DNA from: Sphingomonas bacterium
Lineage (GTDB): Bacteria > Pseudomonadota > Alphaproteobacteria > Sphingomonadales > Sphingomonadaceae
DNA: 44,784 nt
NCBI RefSeq assembly: GCF_028292925.1
Contig: NZ_JAQGLK010000012.1
Coordinates: 1 to 44,784 of the forward strand
Direction of reading: 5' to 3'
The notes below the pieces were generated by a model. That model was not told the origin of the DNA, did not search any database, and saw only the letters and a list, made by a program, of their open reading frames with translations. A program made the position numbers and the translations under genes. The number at the start of each line of letters is the position of its first letter. The first letter of the stretch is position 1. This document shows, piece after piece, positions 6,911 to 43,303 of the stretch.

Positions 6911-8371
6911 TCAGGCCGGCGTGATCGCCAGTGCCACGTCCGTGCGCAGATCGGGCACGGGGACGGTGGTGGCGGCGGCGGCGGCATCCGTCACGATGAT
7001 GTCGCCACCGCCGCACAGCGTTCCCGCTTGAGTATCGAAGCGCCGGACGAGGTAGCGCCCGGCGGCGAGCCCCGGCACCGTCACGTCGGCGTCCCGCGCC
7101 GCGGCGCAGGGATCGAGTGTGCCATCGCGCCGGATCGTATCCGTCCGCAGCAGCCAGATCAGCGCCTGTTCCCCATCGCCGCAGCCGAACCCCGCCACCC
7201 CCGCCGATACGGAGAGCGTCTGGTTCAGGTTGCGGCGGCGAAAGCGCGTCCAGTCGATCAGCGGCAGGAAGGCGGCAAGCGCGCGCTGCGCCTCGCGCAT
7301 TCCCGGCGTCAGCACATGGGGGTGGCGGTTGGGCCAGCGCATCCCGCCCCCTGCCCCGCCGCTCGCCAGATGGGCCCACTGGATGTGCCGGAAATATTCG
7401 TCGTCGAACGCCGCCGGCAACGTCTTGTGCTTGTCCTTGAAGCGGTGGATCGGGCCATGTTCGCTATCGAACACCGGCCGCAGGTCGCTTGCCTCGTTCA
7501 CCGCCGCGCCGATCAGCCTGCCCACCGCCAGCGCCGGAGCTACCGTATCGCGCGGATCGTCGATCGTGCCATGTTCGTAGAGGTGGGTGTTCGCAAAATC
7601 GAGCGCGGGGTGGCGAAAGATCGGCGTGCACAGATCCGGGTACTTCACCAGTTCCGGCCCGAAGATCGACACCGTCTGCGGATGAGCCCGGCCGTGGCGC
7701 GCGATTTCGTGCGCGCGGAGCCATGTCGAGACATCGTCGATGAACGGCGCGAAGCTCGCCGGGTCGTCGCCGCCGTGCGCGGGGTGGATCTCGTTCCAGA
7801 TGTCCCACGCGAACAATGCCGGGCTACCACCCCACCGATCGCTGGCAAAGGCGAGCCGCGCCTTGAGTGCGGCACGGGTATCGGGGCAGGTCAGCCACTT
7901 GCGGCGCCCGGCGCACGGGCCGCCATTCGCCCGGTTGTACGGATGGTGCCGCCACTGCGTCCACATGAAGAAGGTATCGACCGGCGTGAGCAGCAGCCGC
8001 AGCCCGACCTTCTCGCACAGCGCGAACAGATCGTCCCACAGCTGCACCATGTTCGGCGCGAACCGGCCGACCGGCTTTTCGATATAACGGTGGCGAACCT
8101 GCGCATATTCCAGCATCAGCCGCAGGCAGGTGACGCCGTGCGCCTGCAGCCAGCGCAGATGCGCCTCGACACCGGGCAGATCGCGGCGGCGGAACAGCCC
8201 GTTCAGCTCGGGCCAGGAGATCGCGTCGTTCTGGCCGATCGGCGTCCACGGATCACCCTGTTCGGTGACGAAGTAGGGCAGACCCGGACGGGTCTCGATC
8301 CACGGCATCGATGGCGCGCGGCCGGAGGTACAGGTTTCGCCATCGTTCGCGGATCGATCCAGCCATTGCAT
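6911..8371 (-). CDS. GH5-like (cellulase-superfamily) glycoside hydrolase
   Basis: A protein of about 486 aa resembling clan GH-A glycosidases. 'PYFVTEQGDPWTPIGQNDAI' is the usual entry strand. 'WDIWNEIHPAHG' carries the likely acid/base Glu and 'VFDSEHGPIH' the likely nucleophile Glu, about 110 residues apart as expected. A C-terminal region of about 100 residues looks like a beta-sandwich. No signal peptide is seen, so it is probably cytoplasmic. The start is uncertain: ATG 8371 is used, GTG 8401 gives ten more residues, and ATG 8308 fits best where recognisable sequence begins but lacks a ribosome binding site. Substrate unknown. It is divergent from the DUF1003 gene. Confidence 0.8.
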   Translation of the reverse strand: MQWLDRSANDGETCTSGRAPSMPWIETRPGLPYFVTEQGDPWTPIGQNDAISWPELNGLFRRRDLPGVEAHLRWLQAHGVTCLRLMLEYAQVRHRYIEKPVGRFAPNMVQLWDDLFALCEKVGLRLLLTPVDTFFMWTQWRHHPYNRANGGPCAGRRKWLTCPDTRAALKARLAFASDRWGGSPALFAWDIWNEIHPAHGGDDPASFAPFIDDVSTWLRAHEIARHGRAHPQTVSIFGPELVKYPDLCTPIFRHPALDFANTHLYEHGTIDDPRDTVAPALAVGRLIGAAVNEASDLRPVFDSEHGPIHRFKDKHKTLPAAFDDEYFRHIQWAHLASGGAGGGMRWPNRHPHVLTPGMREAQRALAAFLPLIDWTRFRRRNLNQTLSVSAGVAGFGCGDGEQALIWLLRTDTIRRDGTLDPCAAARDADVTVPGLAAGRYLVRRFDTQAGTLCGGGDIIVTDAAAAATTVPVPDLRTDVALAITPA

Positions 8372-8496
8372 GGAACAGGGTGCACCTTCATCCGATCGCA
8401 CCGCCCGACCGGCGCGTGGCCGGACACCTAGCGCGGCCGGGGCTAAATGGAAGAGTTACCGGGCATTTCCGTCGCTGGACAATTGGAGAAGCAGAA

Positions 8497-9039
8497 ATGT
8501 CGCAACAGAAGCAGCAGCAGCAAGAACAAGCGGCATCGTCCGGCATGAGCAGTGCCCTGCGCGCCAACATCGATGCGGTGCAGCGGCATCGCGAGCAGGC
8601 GCGCCGCGATGCAAAGTTCAGCGAACGTGTCGCCGATGCGATCACCCGCTTCGCCGGCAGCATGACCTTCGTGCTGATCCATCTCGCCGCCTACACGCTG
8701 TGGATCGTGATCAATCTCGGCTGGATCCCAAGCCTGCCGCGGTTCGACCCCTCGTTCGTCGTGCTGGCGATGGAAGCTTCGGTCGAAGCGATATTCCTGT
8801 CGACGTTCGTGCTTATCAGCCAGAATCGCATGGCCGCCGCGGCCGATCGCCGTGCCGATCTGGATCTGCACATCAACCTGCTGGCGGAACACGAACTGAC
8901 CAAACTCGCGGTGCTGCTGGCGGCCATTGCCGACAAGCTGGATGTGCACAGCGACGCGGACGTGGAATTGTCCGAGATCATGCAGGACGTGCAGCCGATA
9001 AAGGTGCTCGACGAACTCGACGCCGGTGCCGAGGGCTGA
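8497..9039 (+). CDS. DUF1003 family membrane protein
   Basis: A 180-aa inner-membrane protein. The N-terminus is Gln-rich (SQQKQQQQEQ). The DUF1003 core follows: 'FSERVADAITRFAGSMTFVL', a first hydrophobic helix (about 54-71, 'LIHLAAYTLWIVINLGWI'), 'FDPSFVVLAMEASVEAIFLS' with the second helix, 'LISQNRMAAAADRRADLDL' and a cytoplasmic 'HINLLAEHELTKL' helix. Function of the family is not established. The start has a Shine-Dalgarno (ggagaa, 7-8 bases upstream). The stop codon lies inside a heptamer tandem repeat. Confidence 0.92.
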   Translation: MSQQKQQQQEQAASSGMSSALRANIDAVQRHREQARRDAKFSERVADAITRFAGSMTFVLIHLAAYTLWIVINLGWIPSLPRFDPSFVVLAMEASVEAIFLSTFVLISQNRMAAAADRRADLDLHINLLAEHELTKLAVLLAAIADKLDVHSDADVELSEIMQDVQPIKVLDELDAGAEG

Positions 9040-9068
9040 GGGCTGAGGGCTGAGGGCTGAGGGCTGAG
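9031..9068. repeat. Heptamer tandem repeat GAGGGCT, 5.4 copies
   Basis: Five perfect copies of GAGGGCT (9031-9065) plus GAG. The first copy encodes the last residues of the DUF1003 protein and copies 1-2 supply its TGA. The array fills more than half of the short gap before the convergent ino1 stop at 9104. Because the stop is in the first copies, changes in copy number would not alter the protein. No stem-loop is formed, so it is not a terminator. Confidence 0.95.
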
Positions 9069-40667: not shown

Positions 40668-41041
40668 GAAAGCGGCCGGAACACGGTCATCGTGCCGGCG
40701 GCGGCGCCGTGATCGTCCGCCACCGATATATCAATGCGCTGAAGTTTCGGGCCGGGCGCGGCGCTCGTCCGGCGGGTCCAGCGCCACAGCCGGCCGGCAT
40801 TCTGCTCTTCGCCGTTGGAGAGTCCCATAGTCGGCGGCTCGGGATCGCTCAGCGCCTCCACCGCAATGTTGCGGGCGACGATCTGGCCGATCAGCCGGTC
40901 CTGCAAGCGCGCCGTACTCGACAGGCTGACCCCCTCCAGCCGCAGCAGAGCCAGCGCCGCCAGGCTGAACACCGCCAGCGCGACGACCAGTTCGATGAGG
41001 GTGAAGCCGCTTTCGGCGGATCGGGGATCAGGCGCCGACAC
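40664..41041 (-). CDS. gspI: Type II secretion system minor pseudopilin GspI
   Basis: A 125-aa minor pseudopilin. 'SAESGFTLIELVVALAVFSL' contains the cleavage site G|F and Glu at +5. 'QIVARNIAVEAL' is the conserved GspI helix. GTG 41041 gives a 13-residue leader of normal size and overlaps the gspH stop by 14 bp; a longer upstream frame exists but would give an abnormal leader. Confidence 0.88.
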   Translation of the reverse strand: MSAPDPRSAESGFTLIELVVALAVFSLAALALLRLEGVSLSSTARLQDRLIGQIVARNIAVEALSDPEPPTMGLSNGEEQNAGRLWRWTRRTSAAPGPKLQRIDISVADDHGAAAGTMTVFRPLS

Positions 41042-41498
41042 GCACCGTCCCATCGCCGCCGACATGGATCCGCACGCTCTGTTCGTCCCGCACCAGCACG
41101 ACATCCACCGGGGTGCCCGATCCGGTCGTGTCGAACGTCACACGGGCAGTGCCGCCATCGCCGACGATCGCCTGCGTTCCTTCCGCCCAACGCTGCGGCG
41201 CGAAGGGCTTGGTCGCGATCGGCACCCACCGGCCGGACGAATAGCGGCTGAAGCTGTAACCATCCGGGCGCAACGTCAGCGCGATGTCGCGTGCCTCGAT
41301 CACCGCGGCATCCTGCGCGCCGCGGACGCGGGCGGCAAACCTTTCCGCGTCGGTCTTCAGGTCGCCGCGCGCGTCCGGCATCGTCAGCACCGCCACGCCC
41401 GCCCCCAGCCCGATGATCGCCATGACGACCATCAGCTCGACCAGCGTGAAGCCGCGTTCGCTGGAACGCCGACGGCGCCACATGGCCACCCGCCTCAT
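41028..41498 (-). CDS. gspH: Type II secretion system pseudopilin GspH
   Basis: A 156-aa minor pseudopilin. 'SSERGFTLVELMVVMAIIGL' shows the prepilin site and Glu at +5. 'RFAARVRGAQDAAVIEARDI' and the beta-rich C-terminal domain match the GspH type. ATG 41498 or ATG 41483 give normal leaders. The spacing to gspG's stop is 13 bp. Confidence 0.88.
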   Translation of the reverse strand: MRRVAMWRRRRSSERGFTLVELMVVMAIIGLGAGVAVLTMPDARGDLKTDAERFAARVRGAQDAAVIEARDIALTLRPDGYSFSRYSSGRWVPIATKPFAPQRWAEGTQAIVGDGGTARVTFDTTGSGTPVDVVLVRDEQSVRIHVGGDGTVRVGA

Positions 41499-41511: not shown

Positions 41512-42075
41512 TCAACGCCAGTTGCCGAGATCGGCAGCGTCGCCCTCGCCACCCGGCCGGCCATCCGCACCCAGGCTGGAGATGTCGAACGGGCCGTGCT
41601 GTCCCGGCGACGCATATTGATAGGGCTTGCCCCAGGGATCCTCGGGCAGGCGCTTCAGGTAGCCGCCCGCACGGTAGCGGCCGCCCTGCGCCATGCTGGC
41701 AGGTGGCGTCACCAGCGCCTGGAGCCCGTCCCCCGTCGCCGGGTAGTTGAGGTTGTCGAGCCGGTACATTTCCAGCCCCTGCTCGATCAATGCTATGTCC
41801 GCCTTGGCCTTTTCCACCCGTGCCTTGTCCTGGCTGGGCAGCACGTTGATGACGACGATGGTGGTGAGCAGCCCGATGATGACGATCACCACCATCAGTT
41901 CGACCAGTGTGAAGCCGTGTTCGGCGGAGCGCCGCCGGGGTCTGAAGCCGTGTTCGGCGGAACGCCGCCGGGGTGTGAAGCCGTGTTCGGCGGAACGCCG
42001 CCGGGGCGCGAAGCCGTGTTCGGCGGAGCGCGGCAGGGGCCGTGCGGGGCGGCGGCGGGACAGTCGGGTACGCAT
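41512..42075 (-). CDS. gspG: Type II secretion system major pseudopilin GspG with repeat-expanded leader
   Basis: GspG forms the shaft of the pseudopilus. The mature part is normal: 'FTLVELMVVIVIIGLL', 'KADIALIEQGLEMYRLDNLN' and the C-terminal calcium-site region 'GGEGDAADLGNW'. The leader is not: 54 residues precede the cleavage Phe instead of the usual 5-15. It consists of an Arg-rich start followed by repeats of an 11-residue unit holding 'RSAEHGF', four copies in all, the last being the true cleavage site. ATG 42075 has a good gaggt ribosome binding site and there is no internal Met in the leader, so the long form is what the sequence predicts. Lies 7 bp after gspF. Confidence 0.94.
   Translation of the reverse strand: MRTRLSRRRPARPLPRSAEHGFAPRRRSAEHGFTPRRRSAEHGFRPRRRSAEHGFTLVELMVVIVIIGLLTTIVVINVLPSQDKARVEKAKADIALIEQGLEMYRLDNLNYPATGDGLQALVTPPASMAQGGRYRAGGYLKRLPEDPWGKPYQYASPGQHGPFDISSLGADGRPGGEGDAADLGNWR
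41911..42042. repeat. 33-bp in-frame tandem repeat, four copies, in the gspG leader
   Basis: Units at 41911-41943, 41944-41976, 41977-42009 and 42010-42042 (all 33 bp) share the core gaagccgtgttcggcgga on the plus strand and differ by a few bases at their ends; the fourth is the most divergent. 33 is a multiple of three, so copy number changes keep the frame and vary the leader by 11 residues. The unit derives from the prepilin cleavage region itself. Confidence 0.95.
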
Positions 42076-42082
42076 ATCTACC

Positions 42083-43303
42083 TCATGCTCCGGCGAGCGT
42101 GTTGAGTTGCAGGATCGGCAGCAGGATCGACAGCACGATCACCGCCACCACGCCGCCCATGACGACGATGATCGCCGGCTCGAGCAGCGACAAGGCAGTG
42201 GCGGTGAAGCCGTCGAACTCGCGCTCCAGATAGTCGGCGGCGCGCTCGAGCATGGTGTCGAGCTTTCCCGCCGCCTCGCCGCTGGCCGCCATGTACACCA
42301 GCAGCGGCGGAAACACGCCGGCCCGGCGGAGCGCGGCGGACAGGCTGCCGCCGCCGCGGATCGATTCGACGATCTCGGCCGATGCGGCGCGCAGCGCGCG
42401 GTTGTTGATCGTCTGGGTGGTGAGGACGAGCCCTTCGAGCAATGGCAGCCGGCTCGCCACCATCGTCGAGAGAGTGCGCGCCAGCCGCGCGGCGTGAAGA
42501 TCGCGGACCAGCCGGCCGATCAGCGGGAGCCGGAGCGTGCGGCGATCCACCGCCAGCCGGATCGCCGGATCGCGCATCGCCCGCCAGCCGAGCAGCACCA
42601 ACCCCGCCAACGCGATCGCCAGCGCCCACCACCACGCGGCCAGGAACCCGGAAAGCCCCATGACGATGCGGGTGAGCAGCGGCAGCGTCTGCCCCACATC
42701 GTCGAACTGCTCGACGACCTGCGGCACCACGAACACCATCAACGCGAAGACGACGAAGATCGCGACGATCGACAGCACGATCGGATAAGCAAGCGCAGTC
42801 AGTACCTTGCCGCGCACCTTTGCCTGCCTTTCGAGCAGATCGGCCAGTCGTTCCAGGATCGTCGGCAGCGATCCCGAACTCTCGCCGGCCGAGACCATCG
42901 CCCGGTAGAGCGGCGGAAAGCTCGATGCCTCGCGGGTCATCGCCTCCGAGAGCCGGCGCCCCTCGACCACCCCGGTGTGGACGCCCGTCAGCACACGGGC
43001 GACCTGTGCCTCCTCCGTCTGGCGGGCGATCGTCCGGATCGATTCCTCCAGCGGCGCGACCTGGACGAGCGTGGCCAGCTGCCGGGTGAACAACGTCAGC
43101 TGCTTGCCCGACATGCGCCGACGGAAAGCCGGACGACGGCCGAGCAAGGCGGGGTGAGACACGCCCGATCCGCTGTGAATGCGGACGACGTACAACTTTC
43201 GGGATCCGAGCTGCGCCCGCGCCTCTTCTATTGTCGGCGCGCGCACGTTGCCGCGCCGCTCGCGCCCGGCCGTGTCCAGCGCGACATAGTCGAAACGTGT
43301 CAT
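42083..43303 (-). CDS. gspF: Type II secretion system inner-membrane protein F
   Basis: A 406-aa polytopic inner-membrane platform protein. The N-terminus 'FDYVALDTAGRERRGNVRA' is typical. Two T2SF domains follow (about 70-195 and 270-395), each with 'LFTRQLATLVQVAPLEESI'/'RLARTLSTMVASRLPLLEGL' and 'MVSAGESSGSLPTILERLA'/'MAASGEAAGKLDTMLERAA'. Three hydrophobic helices are visible: 'AYPIVLSIVAIFVVFALMVF', 'FLAAWWWALAIALAGLVLLG' and the C-terminal 'IIVVMGGVVAVIVLSILLPI'. Normal length. It is 9 bp after gspE. Confidence 0.96.
   Translation of the reverse strand: MTRFDYVALDTAGRERRGNVRAPTIEEARAQLGSRKLYVVRIHSGSGVSHPALLGRRPAFRRRMSGKQLTLFTRQLATLVQVAPLEESIRTIARQTEEAQVARVLTGVHTGVVEGRRLSEAMTREASSFPPLYRAMVSAGESSGSLPTILERLADLLERQAKVRGKVLTALAYPIVLSIVAIFVVFALMVFVVPQVVEQFDDVGQTLPLLTRIVMGLSGFLAAWWWALAIALAGLVLLGWRAMRDPAIRLAVDRRTLRLPLIGRLVRDLHAARLARTLSTMVASRLPLLEGLVLTTQTINNRALRAASAEIVESIRGGGSLSAALRRAGVFPPLLVYMAASGEAAGKLDTMLERAADYLEREFDGFTATALSLLEPAIIVVMGGVVAVIVLSILLPILQLNTLAGA

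What the first reader, a model, noticed from the sequence alone, without database searches (positions are those of the whole stretch)
41911..42075. Prepilin cleavage site multiplied by a 33-bp repeat in the GspG leader
The major pseudopilin leader is 54 residues because the region encoding 'RSAEHGF' was repeated four times in frame. Prepilin peptidase cuts G|F before a hydrophobic helix with Glu at +5; only the last copy meets that, but the earlier three are decoys carrying the same residues. Copy-number change would tune leader length and charge (many Arg), and so perhaps GspG insertion or processing.
Basis: partly seen in the sequence, partly recalled or inferred. Interest (0 to 1): 0.75.

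Follow-up and report, generated by a model that had tools for sequence, protein, structure and literature searches.

The report
Repeat that colonises prepilin cleavage sites
A 33-base DNA repeat sits, in reading frame, exactly at the point where the leader of secretion-pilus proteins is cut off, in many relatives of this bacterium and in up to four neighbouring genes at once, and it is its DNA letters rather than its protein meaning that are kept the same.

Summary
In detail: four 33-bp copies (41907-42039, 92% matches) lie in frame in the 54-residue GspG leader. It is one case of a pattern so far seen only in sphingomonads. Two tandem copies occur in 63 stretches among 84,980 species genomes, each directly before GF|TL[VIL]E of GspG, H, I or J, 2 to 9 copies. 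Of 149 gsp loci not chosen for repeats, 22 have an array. The 21-nt core CGTTCCGCCGAACACGGCTTC is conserved at nucleotide level: unusual codons dominate and third-position identity stays near 0.92 while four-fold sites of the same genes fall to 0.4 and the 12-nt linker to 0.5. In 26 array genomes every listed core copy lies in gsp. An empty/filled Sphingobium gspI pair shows a clean 66-bp insertion at GGNTTY^ACG. I read it as a tolerated, probably selfish in-frame minisatellite that spreads between pseudopilin genes through the shared GGCTTCACG junction and expands by slippage, moving the cleavage site downstream. Why the core word is so fixed is unexplained. Charge tuning is not supported. 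Nothing on it turned up in the papers searched.

The parts
41512..42075 (-). gspG, major pseudopilin (187 aa) with the 54-residue leader
41914..42075 (-). GspG leader coding region, from ATG to Gly54 before the predicted cleavage
42010..42042 (-). repeat unit 1 (5'-most, RPLPRSAEHGF), core 42010-42030 one mismatch
41977..42009 (-). repeat unit 2 (APRRRSAEHGF), core exact
41944..41976 (-). repeat unit 3 (TPRRRSAEHGF), core exact
41911..41943 (-). repeat unit 4 (RPRRRSAEHGF), supplies the predicted cleavage site G|F; core one mismatch
42080..42084 (-). Shine-Dalgarno-like GAGGT, 4 bases before the gspG ATG
   Evidence: read from the sequence
41448..41468 (-). single decayed core (3 mismatches) at the GspH cleavage site
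   Evidence: class H from the gene order used
41003..41023 (-). single decayed core (3 mismatches) at the GspI cleavage site
   Evidence: class I from the gene order used
42083..43303 (-). gspF, upstream neighbour
   Evidence: ORF; the name is recalled from the usual gsp gene order and was not tested with a family search

Best explanation
The array is a small in-frame minisatellite that lives at the leader/mature junction of type II secretion pseudopilin genes of sphingomonads. Its unit is 33 bp: a loose 12-nt linker that often starts with ACG, plus a fixed 21-nt core ending in GGCTTC. A unit enters a new pseudopilin gene by recombination or template switching between the short sequence GGCTTCACG, shared by the junctions of gspG, H, I and J, and the same sequence repeated every 33 bp in a donor array of the same operon. 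It therefore lands in frame after the old Gly-Phe and brings a new Gly-Phe in front of the hydrophobic helix. The old cleavage site becomes leader and the new last copy becomes the site. Slippage then changes copy number. The host tolerates this because the leader stays cytoplasmic and is cut off. Shown: register, period, confinement to gsp, copy-number differences between species, nucleotide-level conservation, and one clean insertion site. Inferred: the recombination route, the selfish or neutral status, and that the fixed core is recognised or needed as DNA or RNA.
For: Distribution: in 63 of 63 stretches with two tandem copies among 84,980 species genomes the array abuts a G/H/I/J junction (mature starts TLVE 60, TLIE 35, TLLE 6 in the named loci). 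Of 494 core copies (3 or fewer mismatches) in 215 loci (some genomes present twice), 469 are in register with a G/H/I/J site; of the other 25, 23 belong to junctions cut by a locus end, one is a 30-bp-spaced copy (L233) and one is out of frame (L122). Every core copy listed for 26 array genomes lies in gsp. Period: 36 of 37 array leaders with a TRF hit have period 33. Insertion: gspI without array (L139) and with two units (L124) match at 84% over 322 nt left and 82% over 300 nt right when exactly 66 nt are skipped, 28% if not. ACG follows the array in 106 of 116 genes against 172 of 405 without units. Nucleotide level: in last units Arg is CGT 100 of 109 (background 10%), Ser TCC 102 of 109 (15%), His CAC 97 of 97 (42%), and AGG, 3% of background Arg, is the top codon at -7; the first three hold without the two DNA-chosen loci. 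Third-position identity is 0.87-0.95 in every distance bin, linker 0.49-0.54 in all but the closest bin of 2 pairs (1752 pairs). Exchange: identical linkers in 64 genome pairs against means of 0.6 and 2.3 in shuffles; cross-paralog linker identity within genomes 0.499 against 0.428 permuted, 0 of 2000 as high. Patchy: 13 changes for 22 of 125 rows.
Against: Homogenisation by slippage and exchange within a genome does not by itself explain why the core stays the same across distant genomes while the linker of the same unit drifts, so part of the mechanism is missing. Only one clean empty/filled pair with both flanks was shown; a second pair (L152/L102) has a codon lost and a shortened first unit, and in most close pairs the whole leader differs. 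GGNTTY stands before the first unit in only 33 of 111 arrays. Transfer between genomes has no known vehicle: no exact core in viral contigs, no array match in plasmids. Within-genome linker likeness could partly reflect shared base composition, and shared linkers partly common descent of related species.
Confidence: 0.6

Rival explanations
1. The core is a binding or pairing site for a regulator: a DNA-binding protein, an RNA-binding protein or a small RNA acts on the 21-nt word (hairpin GCCG-AACA-CGGC) in gsp DNA or mRNA, and copy number sets the dose.
For: Silent sites about as conserved as the others, with a sharp end after ACG. Pair 22-27 of the hairpin has the largest excess of pairing of all column pairs tested (275 observed, 244.6 expected), through a G-C to C-G flip that changes Glu-His to Gln-Gln. 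33 bp is close to three helical turns.
Against: The flip is nearly always one haplotype (CAACAG), perhaps one event. A second proposed stem is mixed: pair 4-12 shows excess pairing (213 against 195.9), pair 6-10 a deficit (112 against 123.3), the rest little. Folding is only mildly better than shuffles (z -0.8 to -1.7). Arrays appear in any mix of four genes and are absent from most sampled gsp loci, odd for a regulatory site. In window 41700-42300 no Rfam family reached its gathering score.
Confidence: 0.2
2. The peptide RSAEHGF is selected: repeated leader motifs or decoy G-F sites tune docking of the prepilin peptidase, membrane insertion or processing.
For: The heptapeptide is kept in upstream copies while linkers vary, though my search patterns asked for part of it; the last copy is a normal cleavage site.
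Against: Conservation extends to silent sites and to a rare AGG codon, which peptide selection does not predict. Arrays differ between genes and close relatives and unit charge is not kept. One core with the Gln-Gln haplotype is read out of frame. After upstream G-F sites, position +5 is Glu in 16 of 227 and Arg in 139, and no hydrophobic stretch follows, only the next RSAEHGF.
Confidence: 0.08
3. Ordinary neutral tandem duplication in a permissive leader, arisen separately in each gene, with likeness across genera due to recent horizontal transfer of gsp pieces.
For: Leaders look permissive: sequences I take for dispersed repeats sit in several, shown to be dispersed in one genome. In arrays of 3 or more the 5'-most copies are more decayed (19.2 against 20.5 matches of 21 for the 3'-most).
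Against: Separate duplications would not share one 33-bp period and one 21-nt core across genomes and paralogs. Recent transfer would keep linkers as alike as cores, but linkers are about 0.5 identical.
Confidence: 0.12

Closest known systems
[quoted passage not shown] abstract and outline seen)
   Same: In-frame tandem coding repeat, variable copy number, patchy distribution, nucleotide-level symmetry claimed, intragenomic spread proposed
   Different: 25-residue amphipathic unit in diverse ORFs of many clades; here 11 residues, one bacterial family as far as searched, one operon, always at a signal-peptide junction, and the symmetry is weak
Rickettsia palindromic elements (RPE; passages in the MITE review PMC10969869)
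   Same: Short DNA inserted in frame into protein genes at tolerated places
   Different: About 150 bp, palindromic, in unrelated genes; here 33 bp, tandem, only in pseudopilin leaders
REP/MITE-type dispersed palindromes (recalled; a 97-98 bp example seen in the genome of L122)
   Same: Such a palindrome also sits in a pseudopilin leader (L122)
   Different: Dispersed over the genome; the 33-bp core was seen only in gsp
Coding minisatellites / VNTRs (recalled)
   Same: Tandem units, more alike within arrays, copy number differing between close relatives
   Different: The same core is kept across distant genomes and in four paralogous genes

Membership tests
T2SS major pseudopilin GspG | TIGR01710 score over cut-off, N_methyl motif, T2SSG domain | tested here: met
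   175.3 bits vs 88.85; PF07963 33.0 vs 21.2; PF08334 134.7 vs 21
PARCEL | 25-residue unit | tested here: not met
   period 33 bp = 11 residues
PARCEL | Dyad symmetry of the coding DNA | tested here: inconclusive
   4-bp hairpin with one covarying pair; a second stem gives mixed results
Rickettsia palindromic element | About 150 bp palindrome inserted in unrelated genes | tested here: not met
   33 bp unit, at G/H/I/J junctions
REP/MITE | Copies dispersed across the genome | tested here: not met
   26 array genomes, 2 or fewer mismatches: every listed copy lies in a gsp stretch, reversed-pattern control 0; the last rows of G162 were not listed
Coding VNTR | Tandem copies with copy number varying among close relatives | tested here: met
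   5 vs 2 at 95.4% identity, 2 vs 3 at 92.2%, between species
Coding VNTR | Copy-number variation within a species | not testable with these tools
   one genome per species held; two contigs of Sphingomonas laterariae differ but may be an assembly effect

The most novel reading that the evidence does not exclude
A self-propagating 33-bp micro-element, recognised by its 21-nt core through an unknown trans-acting factor, that homes into the prepilin cleavage-site codons of sphingomonads and reproduces its own target (GGCTTC^ACG) each time. This would be a site-specific coding element that makes a new signal-peptide cleavage site with every insertion.
Probability: 0.2. Interest if true: 0.9.

Novelty: new variant of a known kind. 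Interest (0 to 1): 0.72.

Why it matters
It would show that the leader of a secreted-pilin precursor is a genomic refuge where short DNA can insert and expand without harming the protein, because the insert brings its own cleavage site and is then cut off. The silent-site conservation across distant genomes makes a concrete open question testable: what reads this 21-nt word. It also warns annotators, since leader lengths and start codons of pseudopilins in this family cannot be judged by a usual-length rule.

Tried and rejected
Dispersed mobile repeat: rejected for the core, since every copy listed in the array genomes is in gsp. Two-hairpin unit with the linker pairing to AGGCGT: predicted by folding one consensus unit, but over 281 distinct units only pair 4-12 (0 of 1000 shuffles as high) and weakly 1-15 (32 of 1000) support it, 6-10 goes against it (973 of 1000 as high) and the rest do not differ clearly. 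Translation-optimal codons as the cause of the fixed codons: rejected by AGG and TCT, 3% and 1% of their background amino-acid use. Phase variation: 33 is a multiple of 3, so copy number cannot shift frame. Vehicle: no exact core in IMG/VR, no plasmid match for the array. Rfam: two sub-threshold matches beside the repeat. Other families of the order: 0 of 83 genomes with a core (1 or fewer mismatches), against 19 of 213 in the own family. Other periods: of 22 leaders without arrays that have a TRF hit, 15 have period 12; 12 of these end 64 nt or more upstream, but three leaders (L316, L320, L322) have a short 12-bp repeat ending 7 nt before the junction, so tandem repeats there are not wholly peculiar to this unit. 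Literature: searches for pseudopilin leader repeats, sphingomonad type II secretion, in-frame palindromic elements and the peptide letters returned nothing on this (listings only, apart from PMC2996958 abstract and outline and PMC10969869 passages).

Limits: one search found GspG in 200 of 397 genomes but listed only the best-scoring places, of which I fetched 149 beside the window. My gene finder needs a canonical junction. In one search, 15 of 394 units were dropped as not core-like. One search asked for AE[HN]GF and for 5 of 7 residues, so amino-acid conservation of the core is partly built in; silent-site conservation is not. Copy numbers are minimum values where earlier units are decayed. 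'Genomes' are loci grouped by shared identical gene DNA.

Full report
The array. The window holds one strong 33-bp tandem repeat, 41907-42039, 4.0 copies, 92% matches. On the minus strand it lies in frame in gspG (42075-41512), a 187-residue protein that passes the GspG model and carries the N_methyl motif at residues 50-74. The four units read RPLPRSAEHGF, APRRRSAEHGF, TPRRRSAEHGF, RPRRRSAEHGF, and the last is followed directly by TLVELMVVIV. The leader of 54 residues starts at an ATG with GAGGT four bases upstream and has no other ATG, GTG or TTG codon.

It is not private to this genome. A fully codon-degenerate pattern for two AE[HN]GF motifs 33 bp apart gave 63 stretches in 84,980 species genomes. 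In all 63 the array lies directly before GF|TL[VIL]E of a pseudopilin, with 2 to 9 copies (nine in GspJ of Sphingomonas laterariae at a contig end). The titles name Sphingobium, Sphingomonas, Hephaestia, Sphingomonadaceae or Sphingomonadales, except two Proteobacteria MAGs, one uncultured bacterium and one record labelled Microvirga. In a sample not chosen by repeats (GspG hits, stretches), 22 of 149 loci have a gene with two or more units. Over all 215 loci there are 114 arrays in 68 genome groups: J 39, H 36, G 24, I 15; 33 groups have them in two to four paralogs. On a GspF+GspG tree 22 of 125 rows carry an array, with at least 13 changes of state; for single paralogs the changes are G 7, H 10, I 5, J 9 (FastTree). 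The same-genus genome G001 has none (L186). The window's GspH and GspI carry single decayed cores with 3 mismatches.

The period is fixed. TRF on 490 leaders found tandem repeats in 59; 36 of the 37 in array genes have period 33. Of the 22 others, 15 have period 12, mostly far upstream, but three leaders have a short one ending 7 nt before the junction. One 30-bp-spaced copy exists in L233.

The core is kept as nucleotides. In the last unit of 116 arrays, Arg(-6) is CGT in 100 of 109 Arg codons, Ser(-5) TCC in 102 of 109, Ala GCC in 109 of 112, Glu GAA in 107 of 111, His CAC in 97 of 97. The mature parts of the same genes use these at 10, 15, 32, 40 and 42%. Upstream copies behave alike: CGT 155, TCC 167, GCC 197, GAA 165, CAC 151 of 207. 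Leaving out the two loci chosen by DNA changes nothing of note (113 arrays). The block ends sharply: ACG at +2 in 106 of 116, then ordinary variation. Across 1752 same-paralog pairs the core identity is 0.94-0.98 and third-position identity 0.87-0.95 in every bin of mature four-fold identity from under 0.35 to 0.95, while linker identity is 0.49-0.54 except in the closest bin, which has 2 pairs. Single sites are nearly bimodal: either 14-15 of 15 variable core letters (23 genes) or the background hump, with 14 intermediates at 11-13. Core identity is about 0.91 whether arrays come from one genome or from different ones, from the same paralog or not. Peptide selection alone does not explain this; nucleotide-level constraint, or renewal from intact copies, is needed.

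How it gets in. Sphingobium sp. C100 (L139) and S. cyanobacteriorum (L124) give an empty and a filled gspI. With exactly 66 nt skipped, flanks match at 84% (322 nt) and 82% (300 nt); without skipping the right flank matches at 28%. The insertion point is GGNTTY^ACG, and the insert begins with ACG and ends with GGCTTC, so the frame is kept, the old Gly-Phe stays behind as leader, and the insert supplies the new Gly-Phe. L152/L102 gspI is a similar but less clean pair: one codon lost in the leader and a first unit shortened to 27 nt. The gene I take for gspK, whose start in the window lacks this junction, was not seen with a core: no copy in the fetched loci lies at another gene start, and in G177 the arrayed gspJ is followed by a gspK-like ORF without one. 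This fits spread by the short homology GGCTTCACG between paralogs. Traffic between paralogs is supported by linker likeness within genomes (0.499 against 0.428 permuted, 0 of 2000), by identical linkers in 64 genome pairs against means of 0.6 and 2.3 (maxima 4 and 9) in shuffles, and by near-identical GspH and GspJ leaders in S. quisquiliarum.

One copy in another setting. In S. scionense (L122) a core lies out of frame in the gspI leader, inside the central part of a dispersed palindrome. Nine other copies of that palindrome that I could join in the genome are 97-98 bp; this one is 130 bp, so the difference is one unit (32 or 33 nt by alignment), and the core again stands before ACG. This is a single case.

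Structure. The hairpin GCCG-AACA-CGGC is supported by one pair, 22-27: G-C in 250 and C-G in 16 of 281 distinct units, the highest excess pairing of all column pairs tested. The flip turns Glu-His into Gln-Gln, and since it is nearly always the same haplotype it may be one event. A second stem between linker and core gives mixed results: pair 4-12 in favour, 6-10 against. Folding z-scores lie between -0.8 and -1.7.

Where it is not. In 26 array genomes all listed copies with at most 2 mismatches fall inside gsp stretches that I fetched, with zero in the reversed-pattern control (the last rows of G162 were not listed). No exact core in viral contigs, no plasmid match, none in 83 genomes of other families of the order against 19 of 213 in the own family.

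Reading. I favour a tolerated, probably selfish coding minisatellite that uses the pseudopilin junction as its habitat, with probability 0.6. A regulatory or recognition role of the word is the main rival (0.2). Closest known kinds are PARCELs (abstract and outline of PMC2996958 seen) and Rickettsia palindromic elements (passages of PMC10969869 seen); unit size, habitat and confinement differ. That upstream copies are not cut follows from the established need for a hydrophobic segment and Glu+5 (recalled) and was not tested.

Noticed in passing
L005, L006, L007, L010, L013, L096, L098, L114, L122 (pseudopilin leaders): Leaders of pseudopilins in relatives often contain what look like translated dispersed repeats (for example WVPAFAGT, DPRLRGDDE, VIPAQAGIH, PTPNPSLQAGRG; recalled as such), so the leader may be a general landing place for repeats. 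Only the one in L122 was shown to be dispersed.
   Followed up: partly
L131 and L138 (also L221, L220), Sphingomonas laterariae: Two contigs carry the same gsp genes with different copy numbers (GspG 4 vs at least 7, GspJ 9 at a contig end vs 5); both contigs break inside or beside arrays, so this is a duplicated operon, real variation or an assembly effect.
   Followed up: partly
L114 / L256, Sphingobium quisquiliarum GspH and GspJ: The two paralogs share a near-identical leader including an upstream repeat-like stretch, a sign of copying between paralogs.
   Followed up: partly
L243 and L244 (genome G118): This genome has two gspG loci: in one all four pseudopilins have arrays (15 units in all), in the other no unit was found.
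   Followed up: no
window 9031-9068: Perfect 7-bp repeat GAGGGCT x 5.4; the ORF 8311-9039 (+) ends with a TGA inside its first copies, so copy number would hardly change that protein.
   Followed up: partly
L151 GspJ: Seven-unit array in which the three 5' copies end in Gly-Cys instead of Gly-Phe, a change apparently copied along the array.
   Followed up: no
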